Of a DNA stretch of 8,984 bases, positions 142 through 8,984 are shown in pieces (the first letter of the stretch is position 1; each line of letters starts with the position of its first letter). Made by a program: the position numbers and the translations under genes. The stretch spans positions 1 to 8,984 of the forward strand of contig JBFLYA010000152.1 of the NCBI GenBank assembly GCA_040757115.1. Reading direction: 5' to 3'. A model generated the notes under the pieces. It saw only the letters and a list, made by a program, of their open reading frames with translations. It was not told the DNA's origin and did no database searches. Origin of the DNA: a bacterium (GTDB taxonomy: Bacteria > UBA9089 > CG2-30-40-21 > SBAY01).

Positions 142-178
142 TGTAACTATTCAGCCACAGAGGCACAAAGACACAGAG
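142..178 (+). repeat. Left inverted-repeat arm of the 142-350 element
   Basis: It comprises the 13-bp terminal repeat TGTAACTATTCAG (142-154) running directly into the inner 25-base arm (154-178). The terminal word recurs at both ends of the second element (383-394 and, inverted, 632-643), giving four copies in about 500 bases. Confidence 0.75.
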
Positions 179-187
179 ATGTTTAAG

Positions 188-294
188 ATGAAAGATTTCA
201 ATGAGATAACCAGAGAAAATCCTCGGATGTGCGATAGAAGTATATAAGCAAATTCCTCTTGTTAAAAGATGGCATCAAAAGGTATATCTTATAA
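188..294 (+). pseudogene. GxxExxY-family protein remnant (frameshifted, internally deleted)
   Basis: ATG at 188 opens M-K-D-F-N-E-I-T. Removing one extra A near 212 gives E-I-T-E-K-I-L-G-C-A-I-E-V-Y-K up to 248, which is the N-terminal signature of GxxExxY proteins (usually E-I-T-x-K-I-I-G-A-A-I-E-V-H-K). In a third frame, 250-294 reads K-F-L-L-L-K-D-G-I-K-R-Y-I-L and a TAA, which is the family's usual C-terminus (N-F-x-V-x-L-L-K-D-G-I-K-R). Only about 35 of the usual roughly 125 residues remain, and the GxxExxY core itself is missing. One inserted base and one large internal deletion explain this. The family is common in environmental bacteria and its role is not firmly known; a PD-(D/E)XK nuclease-like fold has been suggested. 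This copy cannot make a functional protein. Confidence 0.7.
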
Positions 295-298
295 AATG

Positions 299-350
299 CT
301 CTGTGTCTCTGTGTCTCTGTGGCAAATCTTCATACCTCTGAATAGTTACA
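299..350 (-). repeat. Right inverted-repeat arm of the 142-350 element
   Basis: It holds the complement of the inner 25-base arm at 299-323, a 14-base insertion at 324-337, and the 13-bp terminal repeat at 338-350. The same kind of 'ctctgtgtctctgtgg' sequence is, to my recollection, often found next to GxxExxY genes in environmental genomes. Confidence 0.7.
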
Positions 351-382
351 TTTCGTTTATCGTCTATCGTTTAAAACTATAA

Positions 383-643
383 GTAACTATTCAGCCACTG
401 ATTAACACGGATTAGCACGGATAAATACAAAGGTCAAAAGACAGAAGTCAGAGGCGGGTGTTCCCCGCTGGCGGGGGTTAGGGGTGGAAATTTCCTCCAC
501 TGGCAGAGAATCAAGAAGGATAGAAAATAAAAGTTAGAAGGAGAGAACCCTTCAGCCTTCAGCCTAATTACGGACACGGAAAACGGACACGATTTACGAA
601 TTTTCAGTGTTTCATCCGTATCCATCTGTGGCTGAATAGTTAC
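383..643. mobile_element. Second inverted-repeat element sharing the same ends, non-coding contents
   Basis: A perfect 16-bp inverted repeat bounds it: gtaactattcagccac at 383-398 and its complement at 628-643. Inside the left end is 'cacggattagcacggat'; inside the right end is a related but imperfect 'atccgtatccatctgtgg'. The first 12 bases are the same terminal word as in the 142-350 element. The interior has no convincing gene. It holds a nested GC-rich repeat (461-500), a tandem 7-mer ccttcag (549-562), and two copies of acggacac 13 bases apart (570-577, 583-590). No target duplication flanks it. The base pairs around the 16-mer differ, so either insertion was old or the boundary has changed. 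Confidence 0.6.
461..500. repeat. GC-rich palindromic repeat nested in the second element
   Basis: CCCCGC (463-468) and GCGGGG (471-476) form a hairpin with a TG loop, followed by 'gttaggggtgg' and a second palindrome GGAAATTTCC (486-495) framed by gtgg and ccac. The base content is sharply higher in GC than the AT-rich surroundings. It resembles the 'ccccctaacccccgccagcgggg' type of dispersed intergenic repeat that I recall from several environmental bacterial lineages. It probably inserted into, or was picked up by, the 383-643 element. Confidence 0.5.
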
Positions 644-655
644 GATTTGGTTTAT

Positions 656-838: not shown

Positions 839-1924
839 ATGGGCACAAATGGCTATAATACCCAAAACACTCAAAAAGCAATTTCCTATCAGTTAAAAGG
901 TGCAGTACTGATTGTTACTCTCTGGATATTAGCTATCTTAACCCTATTGGCTATCTCTTTTGCACATCGAATGAGGGTAGAGGTAAAATTGACCAGATTT
1001 CAGGTCGATTCATTAAGGGCATTATATTTAGCTAAAGCAGGGATTAATCATGCTATGGCAGAATTGAAAAAGGATGCTAATGAATACGACAGCCTTAATG
1101 AAGAGTGGAATCTAAAAAAAGAGGTGGGATTAGGAAAAGGAAGGTTTATCTGTCAGATAAGTGATGAGGAACGGAAGATTAATCTGAATTGTGGCACCAG
1201 AACTGTTCTGGAGAAATTGCGCGGGTTGAATGTGAATGAGGGAATAGTCTCCTGCTTGATTGACTGGCGTGATGTAGATGATAAGGAAGAATACTGTGGA
1301 GCGGAGGATAAGTATTATCAAAGTATTGGTAAGAGCTACCACTGTAAAAATAACCCTTTTCAATCAATAGAAGAATTACTCTTAGTCAGAGAGGTCACTT
1401 CAGAAATACTTTATGGTGAGGATATGAATAATAATGGCATTTTAGATCCTAATGAGAACGATGGAGATGCCTCTTTTCCTAATGATGATATGGATGGAGA
1501 GTTGGATTTTGGAATCAGTAGATATGTTACCGTCTACTCTACCGGTATGGTTAATTTTAACACCGCTGAGGTAGAAGTATTAGAATGTCTACCATTCCTG
1601 GATAAAGAATTAGCTCAGGGAATTGTGGATTATCGGGATCAAAGGGAGTGGAAATATGATGAGAATGAGTGTCCTTTCCCAAATTTTAAGGCACTAATGA
1701 ATGTCGATGAGGTAAAGAATAAATATGACATCTATAAAGATAAAGATACACCTGAAGGTAAAAAAATGCAGGAAGAATATAAACAGTTGGAGCAAGATTA
1801 TTTTACTCCAAAATCTCGTAATTTTAAAATTACAGCTACTGGTATAGTAGATAAAGTGATAAGAAGGGTTACTGTAATTTTCGATAGGGAAACTGAGAAG
1901 ATGAAGTATTATCGGGAAGATTAA
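839..1924 (+). CDS. gspK: Type II secretion system minor pseudopilin GspK
   Basis: GspK caps the type II secretion pseudopilus with GspI and GspJ and is processed by the prepilin peptidase. The 361-residue length is normal for the family. A prepilin-like N-terminus is present: K20-G21 followed by A-V-L-I-V and a hydrophobic helix to about residue 42. Mature position 5 is Val rather than Glu, as is usual for GspK. Family landmarks follow in order: I-N-L-N (114-117), L-I-D-W-R-D-V-D-D-K-E-E (140-151) with G-A-E-D (154-157), N-P-F-Q-S-I-E-E-L-L-L-V (172-183), and V-N-F-N-T-A (238-243). A loop at 195-206 (D-M-N-N-N-G-I-L-D-P-N-E) has the spacing of an EF-hand calcium loop. The 21-residue leader is long for GspK. 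There is no Shine-Dalgarno sequence before ATG 839, but a stop at 824 in this frame rules out any earlier start. No other gsp genes are visible, so it sits alone here behind its own promoter. Confidence 0.88.
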   Translation: MGTNGYNTQNTQKAISYQLKGAVLIVTLWILAILTLLAISFAHRMRVEVKLTRFQVDSLRALYLAKAGINHAMAELKKDANEYDSLNEEWNLKKEVGLGKGRFICQISDEERKINLNCGTRTVLEKLRGLNVNEGIVSCLIDWRDVDDKEEYCGAEDKYYQSIGKSYHCKNNPFQSIEELLLVREVTSEILYGEDMNNNGILDPNENDGDASFPNDDMDGELDFGISRYVTVYSTGMVNFNTAEVEVLECLPFLDKELAQGIVDYRDQREWKYDENECPFPNFKALMNVDEVKNKYDIYKDKDTPEGKKMQEEYKQLEQDYFTPKSRNFKITATGIVDKVIRRVTVIFDRETEKMKYYRED

Positions 1925-2049: not shown

Positions 2050-2958
2050 ATGAGTAAAAAAGCATTAAGTGGTTTGATGATCGGGTTAATAGTAGGAGCT
2101 TTTACTTGGGTTTATGCTATGGAAGAAGAGCCTAAAGAGATTGTAAGGGAAGAAGTAGATAAAAGCACTCCCGCGCCAGAGCAGAAGGAAGAAGAGAAAA
2201 AAAGTCCTCTATGGGGTATAAGTGCAGAAAAGATAAAGGTGGAAAAAATTGTTCAGTTGACTACAGATGGAGGGGTTGAATCAATTCAATTTTCTCCTGA
2301 TGGTAAGAAGATTGTAATATCAGGTAGAGGTGAAACATGGATAATGGATGCTGATGGGAAGAATAAGGGGACACTCTCTAAGAATGCACTCCCTAATTGG
2401 ATTGGCAAGCAAGTATCCGGAAGTCCACTTTATTCTCTTTCCTCACCAGATGGAACTAAAATTATTGAACTGTCTCATGACAAGTCACATAAGTATTGGG
2501 AGGCTTCACCATATAGATTAGGGAAAATAAAGAATTTGACTACGGGTAAAGAAATTATATTCCCAACTAAAATGTATTCGAGTATGATTCAATGGTCGCC
2601 AGATGGACAAAAAATTTATTATAATGCCCCTGGTGCTTACAGTTATATCATTGATGTTAATGGGACTATTTTAACCCGTTTTTATCATGATGGAGAGTTT
2701 GTTTGGGCACCAGATAGTATTAAAGTTGCATATAGTGATATGGAGATTGAAGGAGACCTAGGAGATTTGGTGGGTTCGGAGATTTATGTGATGAATGCCA
2801 AAGGTACTGGTAAGATTCAATTAACTAAGACCCCTGGTAAGACGGGAATTGAGGTATCTCCTGTCTGGTCTCCTGATGCAAGTAAGATTTTATATAGACG
2901 AGAATATGATGGAAATTATTTTGTCTTAATATTAGGTGTTAAGGAGGTTGAAGAATAA
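2050..2958 (+). CDS. Exported TolB-like (PD40) beta-propeller protein
   Basis: This is a 302-residue protein of unknown specific function. Residues 1-23 look like a signal peptide: two lysines, a hydrophobic stretch from L6 to W20, and V-Y-A before the likely cut. A charged, probably disordered linker follows (about 25-55, rich in E, K and P). The remainder is a chain of PD40 blades of the TolB type: I-Q-F-S-P-D-G-K-K-I-V-I (79-90), L-S-S-P-D-G-T-K-I-I (130-139), Q-W-S-P-D-G-Q-K-I-Y-Y (181-191), V-W-A-P-D-S-I-K-V-A-Y (218-228), and V-W-S-P-D-A-S-K-I-L-Y (272-282). That gives five recognisable motifs, enough for a five- or six-bladed propeller. Such propellers usually bind proteins or ligands in the periplasm or at the surface rather than catalyse reactions. 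It is tightly coupled to the amidase frame (2 bases apart). That frame contains a related propeller of its own, which suggests a shared partner or envelope role (inference). It is too short, and in the wrong context, to be TolB itself. Confidence 0.8.
   Translation: MSKKALSGLMIGLIVGAFTWVYAMEEEPKEIVREEVDKSTPAPEQKEEEKKSPLWGISAEKIKVEKIVQLTTDGGVESIQFSPDGKKIVISGRGETWIMDADGKNKGTLSKNALPNWIGKQVSGSPLYSLSSPDGTKIIELSHDKSHKYWEASPYRLGKIKNLTTGKEIIFPTKMYSSMIQWSPDGQKIYYNAPGAYSYIIDVNGTILTRFYHDGEFVWAPDSIKVAYSDMEIEGDLGDLVGSEIYVMNAKGTGKIQLTKTPGKTGIEVSPVWSPDASKILYRREYDGNYFVLILGVKEVEE
2941..2947 (+). promoter_or_regulatory. Ribosome binding site of the amidase gene, inside the end of the propeller gene
   Basis: AAGGAGG encodes part of the final K-E-V-E-E of the propeller protein and stands 13 bases before ATG 2961. 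The spacing is longer than usual, but the 2-base gap between stop and start would allow translational coupling. Confidence 0.55.
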
Positions 2959-2960
2959 TA

Positions 2961-3611
2961 ATGACAAATCCAAAACTAAGGGTTATTTTTATAATAGGTT
3001 TTCTGCTTCTATTTAGTCCTCCATCATCTCTATTTGCTGGTCTTCTAACAGGCAAGAGATTTTGTATCGACCCTGGACATGGTGGGACGAAAGCAGATGT
3101 CCCTCAAGGGGTAAACTATAATTTAGGTGCAGGTGGCTATAATGGCTCTGCATGGCCTGATGAAAAGGATCTCGTTCTTGATTGTAGCAAATGCCTATGG
3201 CTCCTCTTGAAGGAAACAGATGCCACTGAAGTAAGATTGACAAGGATAGAAGATGTATATACCTCTTATCATAGAAGAGTTACAGTAGCCAATGGGACTC
3301 CAACTGGTACACCAGCAGTCGATATGTTTATCTCTGTCCATCACAATGGGGTTAGTAACACCGAGAGTAATTATACCCAGACAAATTATGACCCCTCTCC
3401 TGGTACATGTAGCACAAATGGTACTAAAAATCATGAGTTAGCTGTATATACGGTTAATGAGTTGGATTCTCTACTTCGCATAGGTAAGTACAAAAGTAAT
3501 GATGGAACATTAGCCCGAAAATGGGGTAAAAATGGGGTGTATGTTTTACATCATATCACAATGGTAGGTGAATTAACAGAGGCTTCATTCATTAGTTGCC
3601 GTACCGAATAG
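2961..3611 (+). CDS. N-acetylmuramoyl-L-alanine amidase domain (Amidase_3), ends at an in-frame TAG
   Basis: It is predicted to cleave the bond between N-acetylmuramic acid and L-alanine in peptidoglycan, as a zinc enzyme outside the cytoplasm. Residues 1-26 are a signal peptide (hydrophobic 8-20, then S-S-L-F-A). The Amidase_3 catalytic set is complete: H40 in I-D-P-G-H-G-G, E68 in D-E-K-D, H127 in I-S-V-H-H-N-G, and catalytic E207 in L-T-E-A-S-F-I-S. As translated to the TAG it has 216 residues and lacks the last family helix. That helix appears straight after the stop in the same frame (N-K-L-V ... E-E-Y-M-S-Y-A-I-L-L-G-I-L-D-Y-Y, to about 3725). The frame stays open to 8984, so this is most likely the first part of one giant protein interrupted by a nonsense codon, an assembly error or a recoded stop. 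Alone it might still be made, but would probably fold poorly. Confidence 0.8.
   Translation: MTNPKLRVIFIIGFLLLFSPPSSLFAGLLTGKRFCIDPGHGGTKADVPQGVNYNLGAGGYNGSAWPDEKDLVLDCSKCLWLLLKETDATEVRLTRIEDVYTSYHRRVTVANGTPTGTPAVDMFISVHHNGVSNTESNYTQTNYDPSPGTCSTNGTKNHELAVYTVNELDSLLRIGKYKSNDGTLARKWGKNGVYVLHHITMVGELTEASFISCRTE
3609..3611 (+). other. Single in-frame TAG inside the amidase-adhesin frame
   Basis: The context is GAA-TAG-AAC, between C-R-T-E and N-K-L-V. Reading frame and domain continuity are kept on both sides: the amidase domain begins before it and its C-terminal helix lies after it. GAG or CAG to TAG would be a one-base change. The intact genes of the window whose ends are visible all stop with TAA. 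Confidence 0.85.
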
Positions 3612-3683
3612 AACAAATTAGTCACTTCTAACAATGAATTTATTGATTACAATGAGAATGACCATTGTGATCGTGAGGAGTAC

Positions 3684-6600
3684 ATGTCCTATGCTATTCT
3701 ACTTGGTATTTTAGATTATTATGACAAGTCTCATCCAGTAGTTCATACACCTGTAACTACAGCCAATGTAAATCAAGCAATAACTATTACGGCTGAAGTG
3801 ATAGACTTTGCTACAGTTACTTTATGCTATCGAACTTCACCCGGAGGGACCCACACATTTACAAAAGTGCCTATGGTTAAAGGGGCAGAGACTACGTGGT
3901 CAGCAACTATTCCAGCCTCAGCAGTAACCTTATCTGGAGTAGAATATTACATTGCAGTAACTGAGGAATATCTTCAGACTTCAGCTCCATATTTGATAAC
4001 CGTACTCTCTCCACAGGATGGAGCTACACTCAATACACCAAGACCAACCTTTGATTGGAGTGATTCACCCTATACCTCAAAATACACAATACAGGTAGCC
4101 ACATCCACTACCTTTACTAATCCTGTGATTAACGCTACTATTACAACTTCATCATATACTCCCAATCTTGACCTTTCTACTAATACAACCTACTACTGGA
4201 AGGTGTATACTTCTCATTCAGATAGAATTAGTACCTGGACTTTACCATGGAGTTTTATGATAGGTCCCCCTCCAACTTCTCCACCTACAATTGTAAGTAC
4301 AGCTCCAGTTGATGAAGCTCAAAATGTCCCAGTAGACACAAAAATCGTTGTCACCTTCAGTCTTCCTATGAATAAAGCTGATACAGTAGCGGCCTTCTCC
4401 ATTTCCCCTATGGATATCAGATTAATAAATCCAACTTGGAGTGATAATGATACTGTCGTAACTTTTGATTTAAGCGATAAATTAAAGATGAATACAACTT
4501 ATAGAGTAACAATTACTACTATAGCAAAAAGTGCAAATAACGTTTCGTTAGTACAGAATTATAATTGGACATTTACCACTATTCAGAGATGTTGGAGTGA
4601 GGATATAAGATTGACTAATACATCAGGTTACTCCCAATATCCTGCAATTGCTGTAGAGGATAAAAACGTCCATGTTGTCTGGATTGATAAGCGTACTGGA
4701 AGTTGGGAAATTTATTACAAGAAAAGTATGGATGGTGGAAATACGTGGGAAGCTGATGAAGAATTGACTAATTTCCCAGACACCCCTATGCCTGCGATTC
4801 CTCTTAGAGATCCTCGTATTGTTGTAGAGAATAATAATATTCATCTTGTCTGGAGTGAAGATAGAGATGGAAATTGGAAGACTGAAATTTATTATAAGAG
4901 AAGTACCGATGGTGGGAATACATGGGAACCTGAGAAAAAATTAACTAATACTCCAAAAGAATGTGAAGCCCCTACTATTGACATAGATAATGGAAATGTT
5001 CATATAATCTGGGAGGATGATCGAGATGGTGCTTCTCAACTTTATTATAGAAGAAGTACTGATAACGGATTCAGTTGGAACTCTGAGACACGATTGCCTA
5101 ATGTTAGCTATGGACATGATCCCGTGGTTATTGCAAAAGATAATGTTGTTCATGTGCTCTGGAATGATTTTTTCTATCCTAATCACGCAATTTGTTATAT
5201 GAAAAGTATTGACGGAGGACAGAGTTGGGGTTCTAGAGTAATGTTAGCCAGTTACAAAGGAGACATGTGGACACATGATATGGCTATAAATGGTAATAAT
5301 ATTCATGTGGTTTGGATACAAGACTATTTTATAGAATATCACCGGCAGTGGGCAATATATTATACAATGAGTACAGATGGTGGAAATAGTTGGAAAAATA
5401 ATGTAATCCTGAAAGATTCAGGAAATTATGACGACTCTGTCATAACAGATACATCTACAGGTGATATTTATCTAGCTTATAAAAGTTATGAGGATGAAGA
5501 AAGTTATATTTATTATATAAAAAGTATGGATAACGGAGTTACATGGGAAGATGCTATAAAGTTAAGTACTGGCTATTCACCTCAAATAATTTCAGATAAT
5601 AATGATGTACATATAGTTTGGGATGACAATCGTGAGGAAGATTGGGAAATCTATTATAAATCCTATACTTCAGGTTTTGATGTTCCTCCAATTACTCCAA
5701 CAGATTTAAATTTCGAAGCAGGATATGGAATTGTACGCTTAAGTTGGACGCCTAATCCAGAAACTGATATAGCTAAATACAATATCTATAGAGATGATAC
5801 CAAAATAGGAAGTGTTACTATTCCATTTTATCAGGATACCAATGTAGTCAGTGGCAAAACCTACATATACACTATAACTGCTGTAGACAATGCTGGTAAT
5901 GAAAGCAGCCCACAGCTTCCTAATACTCTGAATCCCCCACTTATAGTTCAGGTTCCATCACCTATTCCATTAACTGTTAATCCAGCTATTGATAGTACCC
6001 CCAGTTATTCACCGGATGAGTCTACAATAATCTTTTATACTGACCGTAATGGAACAGGGGATATTTATGGAATGAATTCTGATGGAAGTAATTTAATAGG
6101 TATTATGGAAGACTCATATAATAATTATTCTCCTGATTGTTCTCCTGGTGGAGATATGCTTGCTTTTGTCTCTAATAGAAGTGGGAATGATGACATCTGG
6201 GTATTGAAGAATTTAAATAAAGTTATACAAGGAAATTCACCTGAATTAGTTCCATTAGATGTGGGTGGACAGGGTTGTGATTCTCCAAAATGGTCACCTG
6301 ATGGTAAAATGATAGCTTTTAATCATACTACAGGAGAAAAGAAACATATTTTTGTAGTAACGAATGTCCAGGATATAATTTCAGGTGATGCTACTACTGC
6401 TATAGTAAAACAAGTGACCGATGAAATTGGTGATGATTCAAAACCAATGTGGTCACCTGATGGAGCTATGATTGCTTATACTTCCAAAAGAAATCTTAAT
6501 AATTCGGATGTCTATGTAGTTAAGAATGTGTTAGATGTTATCTACAATGCAGAACCTATTTTAGCTCAATTAACTAATGATTCATCAGAGGATATGGGAT

Positions 6601-8984
6601 GTGGATTTTCACCTGATGGAGAGAGATTTGCGTTAGCTTCAGAAAGAGGTAATAATGGAAAACTTAATACCTGGATAATTAATAATGTTCAAGAGGTAAT
6701 AACTGAAGGCCCACAGGTAGCAAGTATGTCTTATCTTTTTCCATCTCATGCAAATGAAACTGTTACCTGGTTTCCAGATGGGACTAAACTGTTAGTAACC
6801 TCAGACAAAGAAGGGAATTTAGATATCTATGTAGCGGATTATTTATCTGACAATTCAGCCTTTCCAGTAGCTAACATAACTTCACCTATTTCAAATCAAC
6901 AAGTAAGAGGAGAAGTAATAATCAAAGGCACAGCAGAGGATAATGTAAGTGTGGATGGCGGAACCATCCTGTCAAAGTTAGTTTCATATACCCTTGAGTA
7001 TGGAGAATGTCCGGCACCGGATAGTTGGGTAGAAATTATTACTTCTACTACCCCTGTGACCAATGGCACCTTAGCTGTCTGGGATACCAGCGGGCTTTTA
7101 GATGGGATTTATACCATAAGGTTAACGGCTACTGATGGGGAAGATAGTAATGTGGAGAGGGTAACTATTAAAATTGATAATGCACCTCCAATTATAACTA
7201 ACCCACAAGTTACACCAGATACTGTAAGTATAGGTGAACAAGTAAAATTTACTGCCCAAGTAACTGATGAATTTAGTGGAGTAAAATCTGTTACAATTAA
7301 CCTTACTCCTATTGATGGCTCAGCCAATCAACTGATGTTTGACGATGGAACATACGGGGATGAAATAGCCAATGATGGAGTTTATACTTATAAAACTACA
7401 ATACCAGACTCTGTCTCAGTTGGAATAAAGGATTTGGTTATCACTGCTGAGGATAATGTCTCTAATATCAATAAAGCAACTATTTCCCTACAGGTAATAA
7501 ATCCTAAGATAACATCAGTTAATCCTACCTCAGGCACTATTGGAACAGAGGTTACACTGAAAGGTGAAGGCTATCTTGCCACAGAAGAAGTCCGTATTGA
7601 CTTTGGCACTACACGGTCTATTGGGGTTGTGCAAATAAACCAGGCAGGTAGTTTTACGGCTACCTTTACTGTAGATACCCAACCAGGAGGTACCATTACT
7701 GTTACTGCGAGAGGTAAAGATTACACTGACTTCACCTGGTTTAAAATATTTGGTCGGATAACTTTGGTCAGTCCGCAGCAAGGCACAGTTGGGACACGGA
7801 TAGAGGTTATGGGTGATGGATTTGCTGCCAATGAGCGGATAGAGATAGACTTTGGGACTAACCCTACGATAACAGTAACCTCAAGTGATAATGCCGGCAG
7901 GTTCTGGACAGTATTTACTGCCGATACCCAGCCGGGATGTGGCACAATAACCGTCAGTGCCAGAGGTAAAGATTGTGTGGCATACAGCTGGTTCCGAATG
8001 ATTGGTCGGATAACTTTGGTCAGTCCCCAACAAGGCACCGTTGGCCCACGGATAGAGGTTATGGGTGATGGATTTGGTGCAAGTGAGCTGATATACATTG
8101 ACTTTGGGACTAACCCTACCATAGCAGTAACCTGGAGTGATAATGTCGGCAGGTTCTGGGCAGTATTTACAGCGGATACCCAGCCAGGATGTGGCACAAT
8201 CACCATTAGTGCCAAAGGCAAAGATTGTGTGGCATATAGCTGGTTCCGAATGATTGGTCGGATAACTTATGTAAGTCCCCAGCAAGGCACAGTTGGGACA
8301 CGGATAGAGGTTATGGGTGATGGCTTTGCAGCCAATGAGCGGATAGAGATAGATTTTGGGACTAATCCGACGATAGCAGTAGCCTCAAGTGATAATGCCG
8401 GCAGGTTCTGGGCAGTATTTACTGCCGATACCCAGCCAGGATGTGGCACAATAACCGTCAGTGCGAAAGGAAAAGATTGTGTGGCCTACAGCTGGTTCAG
8501 GATGCTGGGCAGGATAACCGCTGTCAGTCCACAGCAAGGCACTATTGGAACAGCAGTAACCGTTAGAGGTGATGGATTTGCGGCAAGTGAGTTAATCTAT
8601 ATCGACTTTGGGACTAACCCGACGATAGCGGTAATCTTAAGTGATGGACTGGGTCGGTTCACTGCTGTATTTACCGCAGACACCCAGCCAGGTTGTGGCA
8701 CAATAACCGTTAGTGCGAAGGGGAAGGATTGCGTGGCATACAGCTGGTTCAGGATGCTGGGTAGGATAACCGCTGTCAGTCCACAGCAGGGCACTATTGG
8801 AACAGCAGTAACCGTTAGAGGTGATGGATTTGCGGCAAGTGAGTTAATCTATATCGGCTTTGGGACCAATCCAACAATAACAACGACCATAAGTGATTAT
8901 CTTGGCAGATTCATCGCCGTATTTACCGCAGATACACAGCCAGGATGCGGGACAATAACCGTGAGTGCGAAAGGGAGAGATTGT
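3684..8984 (+). CDS. Giant multidomain surface protein: continuation of the amidase frame, 3' end beyond the window
   Basis: The frame runs without a stop from 3612 past 8984. ATG 3684 is the first in-frame start after the TAG, with GAGGAG only 3 bases before it and no signal peptide, so independent expression is doubtful. Read through from 2961, there are 2,008 codons in view. Domains by position: end of amidase helix (to 3725); Ig-like (3730-4000); FN3-like, with W-S-D-S-P and Y-Y-W-K-V-Y (4000-4260); Big_5-like, A-P-V-D-E-A-Q-N-V-P-V-D (4290-4590); Asp-box/BNR propeller (4590-5675) with six S-x-D-x-G-x-x-W boxes starting at 4725, 4902, 5055, 5205, 5370 and 5523; FN3 (5685-5930); six PD40 blades (5990-6850); two Ig-like domains (6870-7500); IPT/TIG-like repeats (7509 on). 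Sialidase catalytic residues are not apparent, so the BNR propeller is probably a binding module. Likely role (inference): wall-anchored or secreted adhesin with peptidoglycan-cutting head. Confidence 0.75.
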   Translation, partial: MSYAILLGILDYYDKSHPVVHTPVTTANVNQAITITAEVIDFATVTLCYRTSPGGTHTFTKVPMVKGAETTWSATIPASAVTLSGVEYYIAVTEEYLQTSAPYLITVLSPQDGATLNTPRPTFDWSDSPYTSKYTIQVATSTTFTNPVINATITTSSYTPNLDLSTNTTYYWKVYTSHSDRISTWTLPWSFMIGPPPTSPPTIVSTAPVDEAQNVPVDTKIVVTFSLPMNKADTVAAFSISPMDIRLINPTWSDNDTVVTFDLSDKLKMNTTYRVTITTIAKSANNVSLVQNYNWTFTTIQRCWSEDIRLTNTSGYSQYPAIAVEDKNVHVVWIDKRTGSWEIYYKKSMDGGNTWEADEELTNFPDTPMPAIPLRDPRIVVENNNIHLVWSEDRDGNWKTEIYYKRSTDGGNTWEPEKKLTNTPKECEAPTIDIDNGNVHIIWEDDRDGASQLYYRRSTDNGFSWNSETRLPNVSYGHDPVVIAKDNVVHVLWNDFFYPNHAICYMKSIDGGQSWGSRVMLASYKGDMWTHDMAINGNNIHVVWIQDYFIEYHRQWAIYYTMSTDGGNSWKNNVILKDSGNYDDSVITDTSTGDIYLAYKSYEDEESYIYYIKSMDNGVTWEDAIKLSTGYSPQIISDNNDVHIVWDDNREEDWEIYYKSYTSGFDVPPITPTDLNFEAGYGIVRLSWTPNPETDIAKYNIYRDDTKIGSVTIPFYQDTNVVSGKTYIYTITAVDNAGNESSPQLPNTLNPPLIVQVPSPIPLTVNPAIDSTPSYSPDESTIIFYTDRNGTGDIYGMNSDGSNLIGIMEDSYNNYSPDCSPGGDMLAFVSNRSGNDDIWVLKNLNKVIQGNSPELVPLDVGGQGCDSPKWSPDGKMIAFNHTTGEKKHIFVVTNVQDIISGDATTAIVKQVTDEIGDDSKPMWSPDGAMIAYTSKRNLNNSDVYVVKNVLDVIYNAEPILAQLTNDSSEDMGCGFSPDGERFALASERGNNGKLNTWIINNVQEVITEGPQVASMSYLFPSHANETVTWFPDGTKLLVTSDKEGNLDIYVADYLSDNSAFPVANITSPISNQQVRGEVIIKGTAEDNVSVDGGTILSKLVSYTLEYGECPAPDSWVEIITSTTPVTNGTLAVWDTSGLLDGIYTIRLTATDGEDSNVERVTIKIDNAPPIITNPQVTPDTVSIGEQVKFTAQVTDEFSGVKSVTINLTPIDGSANQLMFDDGTYGDEIANDGVYTYKTTIPDSVSVGIKDLVITAEDNVSNINKATISLQVINPKITSVNPTSGTIGTEVTLKGEGYLATEEVRIDFGTTRSIGVVQINQAGSFTATFTVDTQPGGTITVTARGKDYTDFTWFKIFGRITLVSPQQGTVGTRIEVMGDGFAANERIEIDFGTNPTITVTSSDNAGRFWTVFTADTQPGCGTITVSARGKDCVAYSWFRMIGRITLVSPQQGTVGPRIEVMGDGFGASELIYIDFGTNPTIAVTWSDNVGRFWAVFTADTQPGCGTITISAKGKDCVAYSWFRMIGRITYVSPQQGTVGTRIEVMGDGFAANERIEIDFGTNPTIAVASSDNAGRFWAVFTADTQPGCGTITVSAKGKDCVAYSWFRMLGRITAVSPQQGTIGTAVTVRGDGFAASELIYIDFGTNPTIAVILSDGLGRFTAVFTADTQPGCGTITVSAKGKDCVAYSWFRMLGRITAVSPQQGTIGTAVTVRGDGFAASELIYIGFGTNPTITTTISDYLGRFIAVFTADTQPGCGTITVSAKGRDC
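7509..8984 (+). repeat. Tandem IPT/TIG-like domain repeats, 252-bp period, six units visible
   Basis: Units begin at 7509 (divergent, 249 bp), 7758, 8010, 8262, 8514 and 8766; from 7758 the spacing is exactly 252 bases (84 residues), and the last unit runs off the window. Each starts I-T-x-V-S-P-Q-Q-G-T-x-G (unit 1: I-T-S-V-N-P-T-S-G-T-I-G), then G-D-G-F, I-D-F-G-T-N-P-T-I, V-F-T-A-D-T-Q-P-G-C-G-T-I-T, and G-K-D-C-V-A-Y-S-W-F. That is the pattern of IPT/TIG Ig-like folds, common in stacked stalks of surface proteins. Units 2-6 have two cysteines each; unit 1 has none. Nearly identical DNA stretches mark recent duplication, most clearly between units 5 and 6. Confidence 0.85.

What the first reader, a model, noticed from the sequence alone, without database searches (positions are those of the whole stretch)
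3609..3611. A lone in-frame TAG splits an amidase-adhesin frame of more than 2,000 codons
The frame starting at 2961 is interrupted only once, within the amidase domain, just after catalytic E207 and before its last helix. About 1,790 codons after it contain no stop or frameshift. Long decay would have left more damage, so the options are a very recent nonsense mutation, an assembly error, programmed read-through, or amber recoding (for example suppression or pyrrolysine). Read-through would make two products from one gene: a short secreted amidase and a small amount of a wall-attached giant. The visible intact genes end in TAA, which keeps recoding possible but does not show it.
Basis: partly seen in the sequence, partly recalled or inferred. 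Interest (0 to 1): 0.68.

Follow-up and report, generated by a model that had tools for sequence, protein, structure and literature searches.

The report
Giant surface gene broken by TAG
One very long cell-surface gene of an uncultured bacterium carries a single TAG stop near its start; this bacterium uses TAG as an ordinary stop and shows no machinery for reading through it, so this is most likely an ordinary recent loss-of-function mutation, or a one-base error in the assembled sequence.

Summary
TAG 3609-3611 is codon 217 and the only stop in the frame from 2961 to the window end, which is also the contig end; 1,791 open codons follow it. It lies inside an Amidase_3 domain, ten codons after catalytic E207, and the codons after it still encode the domain's last helix. 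The unbroken frame is therefore ancestral and the stop is derived. All 25 aligned homologues have a sense codon there, and this is the only stop-containing Amidase_3 match in 19 genomes of the phylum. Recoding was tested and not supported. None of the 47 tRNAs found reads UAG, RF1 is present, no PylS passes its cut-off, and TAG ends 21.5% of sampled ORFs with no excess of open frame behind it. Programmed read-through has no positive sign: no known motif, no unusual RNA structure, no conserved stop. A restart at ATG 3684 would lack a signal peptide. In 936 kb of the same genome, no other long in-frame pair lacks a start codon beside the stop. The best reading is a recent nonsense allele in a lineage-specific giant surface gene. 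A single-base consensus error or strain mixture cannot be excluded without reads. More striking in passing: contig C1 (85,129 bases) is one open frame of 28,375 codons.

The parts
2961..3608 (+). 5' part of the broken gene: signal-peptide-like N terminus (about residues 1-26) and most of an Amidase_3 (N-acetylmuramoyl-L-alanine amidase) domain; H40, E68, H127 and E207 at the zinc/catalytic positions
   Evidence: (PF01520, 64 bits against cut-off 27)
3609..3611 (+). in-frame TAG, codon 217, inside the Amidase_3 domain
   Evidence: sense codon in 25 of 25 aligned homologues; only stop-containing Amidase_3 match in 19 phylum genomes
3612..3743 (+). remainder of the amidase domain, including its last helix, now behind the stop
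   Evidence: alignment of 25 homologues; family HMM score 85.5 for the part before the stop, 90.1 read through
3612..8984 (+). 1,791 stop-free codons after the TAG, running off the contig end
4275..4580 (+). Big_5 Ig-like domain
   Evidence: 66.7 bits
4644..5252 (+). BNR_2 repeat domain
   Evidence: 59.3 bits
5990..6850 (+). PD40 beta-propeller repeats (four stretches; approximate limits)
   Evidence: 117 bits; best stretch residues 1150-1186
7497..8984 (+). IPT/TIG repeats; 252-base tandem unit from 7736, where the assembly breaks
   Evidence: PF01833, 100.5 bits, 5 stretches
3676..3686 (+). AGGAG and ATG 3684, the first possible restart after the stop; lies inside the last amidase helix and gives no signal peptide
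3645..3672 (+). possible 10-base-pair hairpin 33 bases after the stop; surrounding 120 bases fold no better than shuffles
   Evidence: z -0.64
2050..2958 (+). upstream gene, 302-aa PD40/TolB-like propeller protein, ends 2 bases before the amidase start

Best explanation
A one-piece gene for a secreted giant protein (signal peptide, amidase, Ig-like, BNR, PD40 and TIG repeats) has been interrupted by a single recent nonsense change that turned a sense codon of the amidase domain into TAG. TAG ends translation there as it does elsewhere in this genome. The cell then makes at most a 216-residue amidase fragment without its last helix, probably unstable or inactive, and none of the giant except by background leakage. 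Shown: the stop, the intact frame on both sides, homology across the stop, a sense codon in all homologues, ordinary use of TAG in the genome. Inferred: that the change is real rather than a consensus error, and the fate of the products.
For: 25 of 25 homologues have a sense residue at the TAG column (Glu in 18) and keep at least 28 further residues, including the last helix. Of 30 Amidase_3 matches above cut-off in the phylum, only this one holds a stop. TAG is a normal stop: 106 of 492 sampled ORFs end in it, in-frame extensions after TAG are no longer than after TAA or TGA, and complete genes such as phosphoglycerate kinase and VorB end in TAG. RF1 present; no CUA anticodon among 47 tRNAs; no PylS above cut-off. 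No stop in 1,791 codons although 680 single changes would make one, so the frame has drifted less than about 0.013 neutral substitutions per site. No counterpart of this amidase gene or of its 302-aa neighbour was found in the same-genus genome, which suggests a dispensable lineage-specific gene. An intact 436-aa amidase gene lies elsewhere in the genome (C21).
Against: No reads and no second genome of the species were available, so a wrong base or minority strain variant in the consensus would look the same. No true orthologue (over 50% identity) was found, so the sense codon is inferred from homologues of at most about 47% identity.
Confidence: 0.6

Rival explanations
1. The TAG is a single-base error or a strain-mixture artefact in the metagenome consensus; the cell's gene is intact.
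For: Explains the undamaged 1,791 codons at no cost. The contig is short and ends in repeats. The codon lies outside the repeats but could still be a mixed base.
Against: No other split of this kind in about 936 kb of the same assembly, and no stop in the related giant frames, e.g. 28,375 codons of C1, so substitution errors making stops are rare. The amidase region has no second DNA copy in the genome, so repeat collapse is unlikely here.
Confidence: 0.31
2. Programmed read-through: the gene makes a short amidase and, at low level, the giant fusion.
For: The downstream frame is perfectly open. UAG followed by A is not the strongest termination context (UAAU is; PMC5289835). A 10-base-pair hairpin could form 33 bases downstream.
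Against: No relative has a stop at this place. What follows is AAC AAA, not the known CAR-YYA read-through motif (own knowledge). The 120 bases after the stop fold no better than shuffles. The short product would lack part of its catalytic domain. The other amidase fusions of the phylum (787, 791, 774, 778 aa) have no stop.
Confidence: 0.04
3. The downstream frame is an independent gene starting at ATG 3684.
For: AGGAG stands three bases before ATG 3684.
Against: The start lies inside the last amidase helix, the protein would lack a signal peptide, and all 24 comparable in-frame neighbour pairs in the sample have their start within 12 codons of the stop, against 24 here.
Confidence: 0.04
4. 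UAG is recoded in this organism by a suppressor tRNA or pyrrolysine.
For: Only the open frame itself.
Against: No CUA tRNA, RF1 present, no PylS, TAG used normally as a stop.
Confidence: 0.01

Closest known systems
Recent nonsense pseudogene (single-stop null allele) in a bacterial surface protein gene
   Same: one derived stop, intact frame after it, sense codon in all homologues, dispensable lineage-specific gene
   Different: the gene is unusually long, so the missing further damage is easy to see; allele frequency unknown
Amidase_3 (PF01520) wall amidases with long C-terminal adhesin-like extensions, e.g. the 787- and 791-aa genes of G013 and G008
   Same: N-terminal amidase followed by a long extension
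   Different: those frames have no stop and shorter extensions; the domain here is more divergent (64-70 bits)
Giant ORFs of candidate phyla such as Omnitrophota (PMC10066038)
   Same: very long repetitive open frames with extracellular domains
   Different: different phylum; this gene is cut by a stop and by the contig end
Viral UAG read-through (MuLV gag-pol, PMC4178896) and pyrrolysine or amber recoding
   Same: in-frame UAG before a long open frame
   Different: no motif or unusual structure, no conservation of the stop, no suppressor tRNA

Membership tests
Amidase_3 (PF01520) | profile score above the curated cut-off | tested here: met
   64 bits against 27; 69.8 bits across the stop
Amidase_3 (PF01520) | zinc ligands and catalytic Glu | tested here: met
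   H40, E68, H127 and E207 align with the family positions; activity not testable
Amidase_3 (PF01520) | complete domain, with last helix, in one translated frame | tested here: not met
   the last helix lies after the TAG; the other high-scoring phylum members run to model position 171-174 without a stop
Amber recoding / pyrrolysine | tRNA with CUA anticodon | tested here: not met
   47 tRNAs found, none CUA
Amber recoding / pyrrolysine | PylS | tested here: not met
   best match 35 bits against cut-off 178
Amber recoding / pyrrolysine | TAG rare as a terminator, open frames continuing behind it | tested here: not met
   21.5% of ORFs end in TAG; extensions of 100 codons or more: 4/106 TAG, 13/280 TAA, 5/105 TGA, the long ones beginning with their own start codon
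Programmed stop-codon read-through | stop conserved in orthologues with intact downstream frame | tested here: not met
   no homologue has a stop there; no close orthologue exists in the held genomes
Programmed stop-codon read-through | stimulatory motif or RNA structure just after the stop | tested here: not met
   AAC AAA follows; fold z-score -0.64
Programmed stop-codon read-through | both products made | not testable with these tools
   needs proteomics or a reporter assay
Recent nonsense pseudogene | single derived stop, frame otherwise intact, sense codon in homologues | tested here: met
Recent nonsense pseudogene | stop present in reads or in a second genome of the species | not testable with these tools
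   no reads; one genome per species held

The most novel reading that the evidence does not exclude
The TAG is a functional leaky stop that sets the ratio of a short secreted amidase to a giant amidase-adhesin fusion in this lineage alone.
Probability: 0.04. Interest if true: 0.6.

Novelty: new member of a known kind. Interest (0 to 1): 0.13.

Why it matters
As an ordinary null allele or consensus error it matters little. It shows that a single in-frame stop before a very long open frame need not mean recoding, and that a few genome-wide checks (tRNA set, release factor, stop usage, open extensions, homologues) can settle most of the question without reads. If read-through were shown, it would be a rare bacterial case of one gene giving a short enzyme and a giant surface protein.

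Tried and rejected
(1) Amber recoding: rejected on the tRNA, RF1, PylS and stop-usage tests. (2) Repeat-driven misassembly at the TAG: no second DNA copy of the amidase region; the tandem repeats start at 7736. (3) Other TAG-interrupted giants in relatives: the one flagged in G002 (C44) is a normal gene end with several stops behind it. (4) Independent downstream gene from ATG 3684: rejected on start position and missing signal peptide. (5) Orthologues in GTDB contigs: the amidase query gave none; an exact 24-mer from the gene was not in IMG/VR. (6) Same-genus synteny: the GspK-like neighbour has relatives (74-75%), but no counterpart of the amidase gene was found. (7) Solved structures: only CwlV (1jwq), aligned before the stop. 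(8) No structure prediction was run: homologue loci came from the genome search, which the tool does not list as acceptable input, and a single divergent sequence would give a poor model.

Full report
What is there. The frame from ATG 2961 runs to base 8984 with one stop, TAG at 3609-3611, codon 217. It follows by two bases the stop of a 302-aa PD40/TolB-like gene. The window is the whole of contig C152 in a 4.32-Mb metagenome-style assembly of 462 contigs, 99.87% complete, so the 3' end of the gene is missing; the contig stops inside a 252-base tandem repeat. Read through, the protein has a signal-peptide-like N terminus, Amidase_3, Big_5, BNR_2, PD40 and TIG repeats. After the stop there are 1,791 open codons; the chance of that at this composition is about 10^-55.

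Is the stop inside a domain? Yes. Relatives found by the genome search were translated and aligned. Every one of 25 homologues has a sense residue at the TAG column (Glu in 18) and continues for at least 28 residues through the final helix. The window continues likewise after the stop (NKL...REEYMSYAILLGILDYY). A profile built from the homologues scores 85.5 bits for the part before the stop, 90.1 read through, and 4.1 for the part after it alone; the gain is small because the domain is divergent. Among 30 Amidase_3 matches above cut-off in the 19 held genomes of the phylum, this is the only one with a stop. The unbroken frame is therefore the older state. This rests on homologues of at most about 47% identity; no close orthologue was found.

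Does this organism read TAG? Three lines say no. First, the RF00005 scan found 47 tRNAs and ARAGORN read no CUA anticodon on them; the scan scored 150 of 280 first-look candidates. Release factor 1 is present (493 bits against cut-off 423). PylS has no match above cut-off (35 bits against 178). Second, in 800 kb of the genome 492 ORFs of 120 aa or more end in TAA (57%), TAG (21.5%) or TGA (21.5%), and the open extension after TAG is not longer than after the others (means 22, 32 and 30 codons for TAG, TAA and TGA). Third, complete phosphoglycerate kinase, VorB and a peptidyl-prolyl isomerase end in TAG. In 936 kb there are 24 stop-separated pairs of open frames of 150 codons or more (14 TAA, 5 TGA, 5 TAG); in all of them a start codon lies within 12 codons of the stop, as for operon neighbours. 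In the window the first start codon comes after 24 codons. The window's split is thus an outlier in its own genome, and not part of a TAG pattern.

Is it programmed read-through? There is no positive sign. The next codons are AAC AAA. The 120 bases after the stop fold with z -0.64, although one 10-base-pair hairpin could form 33 bases downstream. The short product would lack the last helix of its own enzyme. Other amidase fusions of the phylum have no stop.

How old is it? In the 1,791 codons, 680 single-base changes would create a stop. With none seen, the frame has accumulated less than about 0.013 neutral substitutions per site since any loss of function (95% limit). So if the stop is real and inactivating, it is recent.

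Mutation or error? This cannot be decided here. In favour of a rare error rate: no comparable split in the 936-kb sample, and no stop in the related giant frames. In favour of a real allele: no counterpart of this gene or of the adjacent propeller gene was found in the same-genus genome, and another intact amidase gene is present (C21). I put about 0.6 on a real recent nonsense allele, 0.31 on a consensus or strain-mixture artefact, 0.04 each on read-through and on an independent downstream gene, and 0.01 on recoding. These figures are judgement.

Context. Related repeat-rich giants are common in this genome: C1 is one open frame of 28,375 codons across its whole 85,129 bases, C29 holds 8,268 codons, C13 4,368, C122 3,334 and C87 3,268. 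C87 begins with what reads as an M23-type peptidase (by eye, not scanned) and carries the same repeats; C122 carries the 3' end of such a gene and ends in a weak Por_Secre_tail/FlgD-like domain, below cut-off. Giant ORFs are known from Omnitrophota (PMC10066038). One genome of this phylum (G016) matches the record of bacterium UBA9088; the phylum name itself was not established here.

Noticed in passing
G000 contig C1 (L244-L248), minus strand, 85,129 bases: The longest contig is one open frame of 28,375 codons with no stop, open at both ends, made of TIG-like repeats by eye (no Pfam match in a 4,000-residue piece). Among the longest bacterial frames known to me; worth a study of its own.
   Followed up: partly
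G000 C29, C13, C122, C87 (L249-L252, L097, L096): Further giant frames of 3,268 to 8,268 codons sharing the repeats of the window; C87 reads as an M23-type wall peptidase at its start, and C122 ends in a weak Por_Secre_tail/FlgD-like domain.
   Followed up: partly
window 839-1924: GspK-like minor pseudopilin gene with a paralogue at C15 (75% identity); the window copy has an extra acidic stretch (DMNNNGILDPNENDGD...).
   Followed up: no
window 143-652: Intergenic direct and inverted repeats around GTAACTATTCAGCCACAGA and the CACAGAG motif.
   Followed up: no
window 7497-8981: A Pfam match to the pertussis toxin S2/S3 C-terminal model in the TIG repeats (35.6 bits on the repeats, 25 on the whole frame) is carried by 48 repeated residues with no single passing stretch; read as a repeat artefact, not a toxin.
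   Followed up: yes
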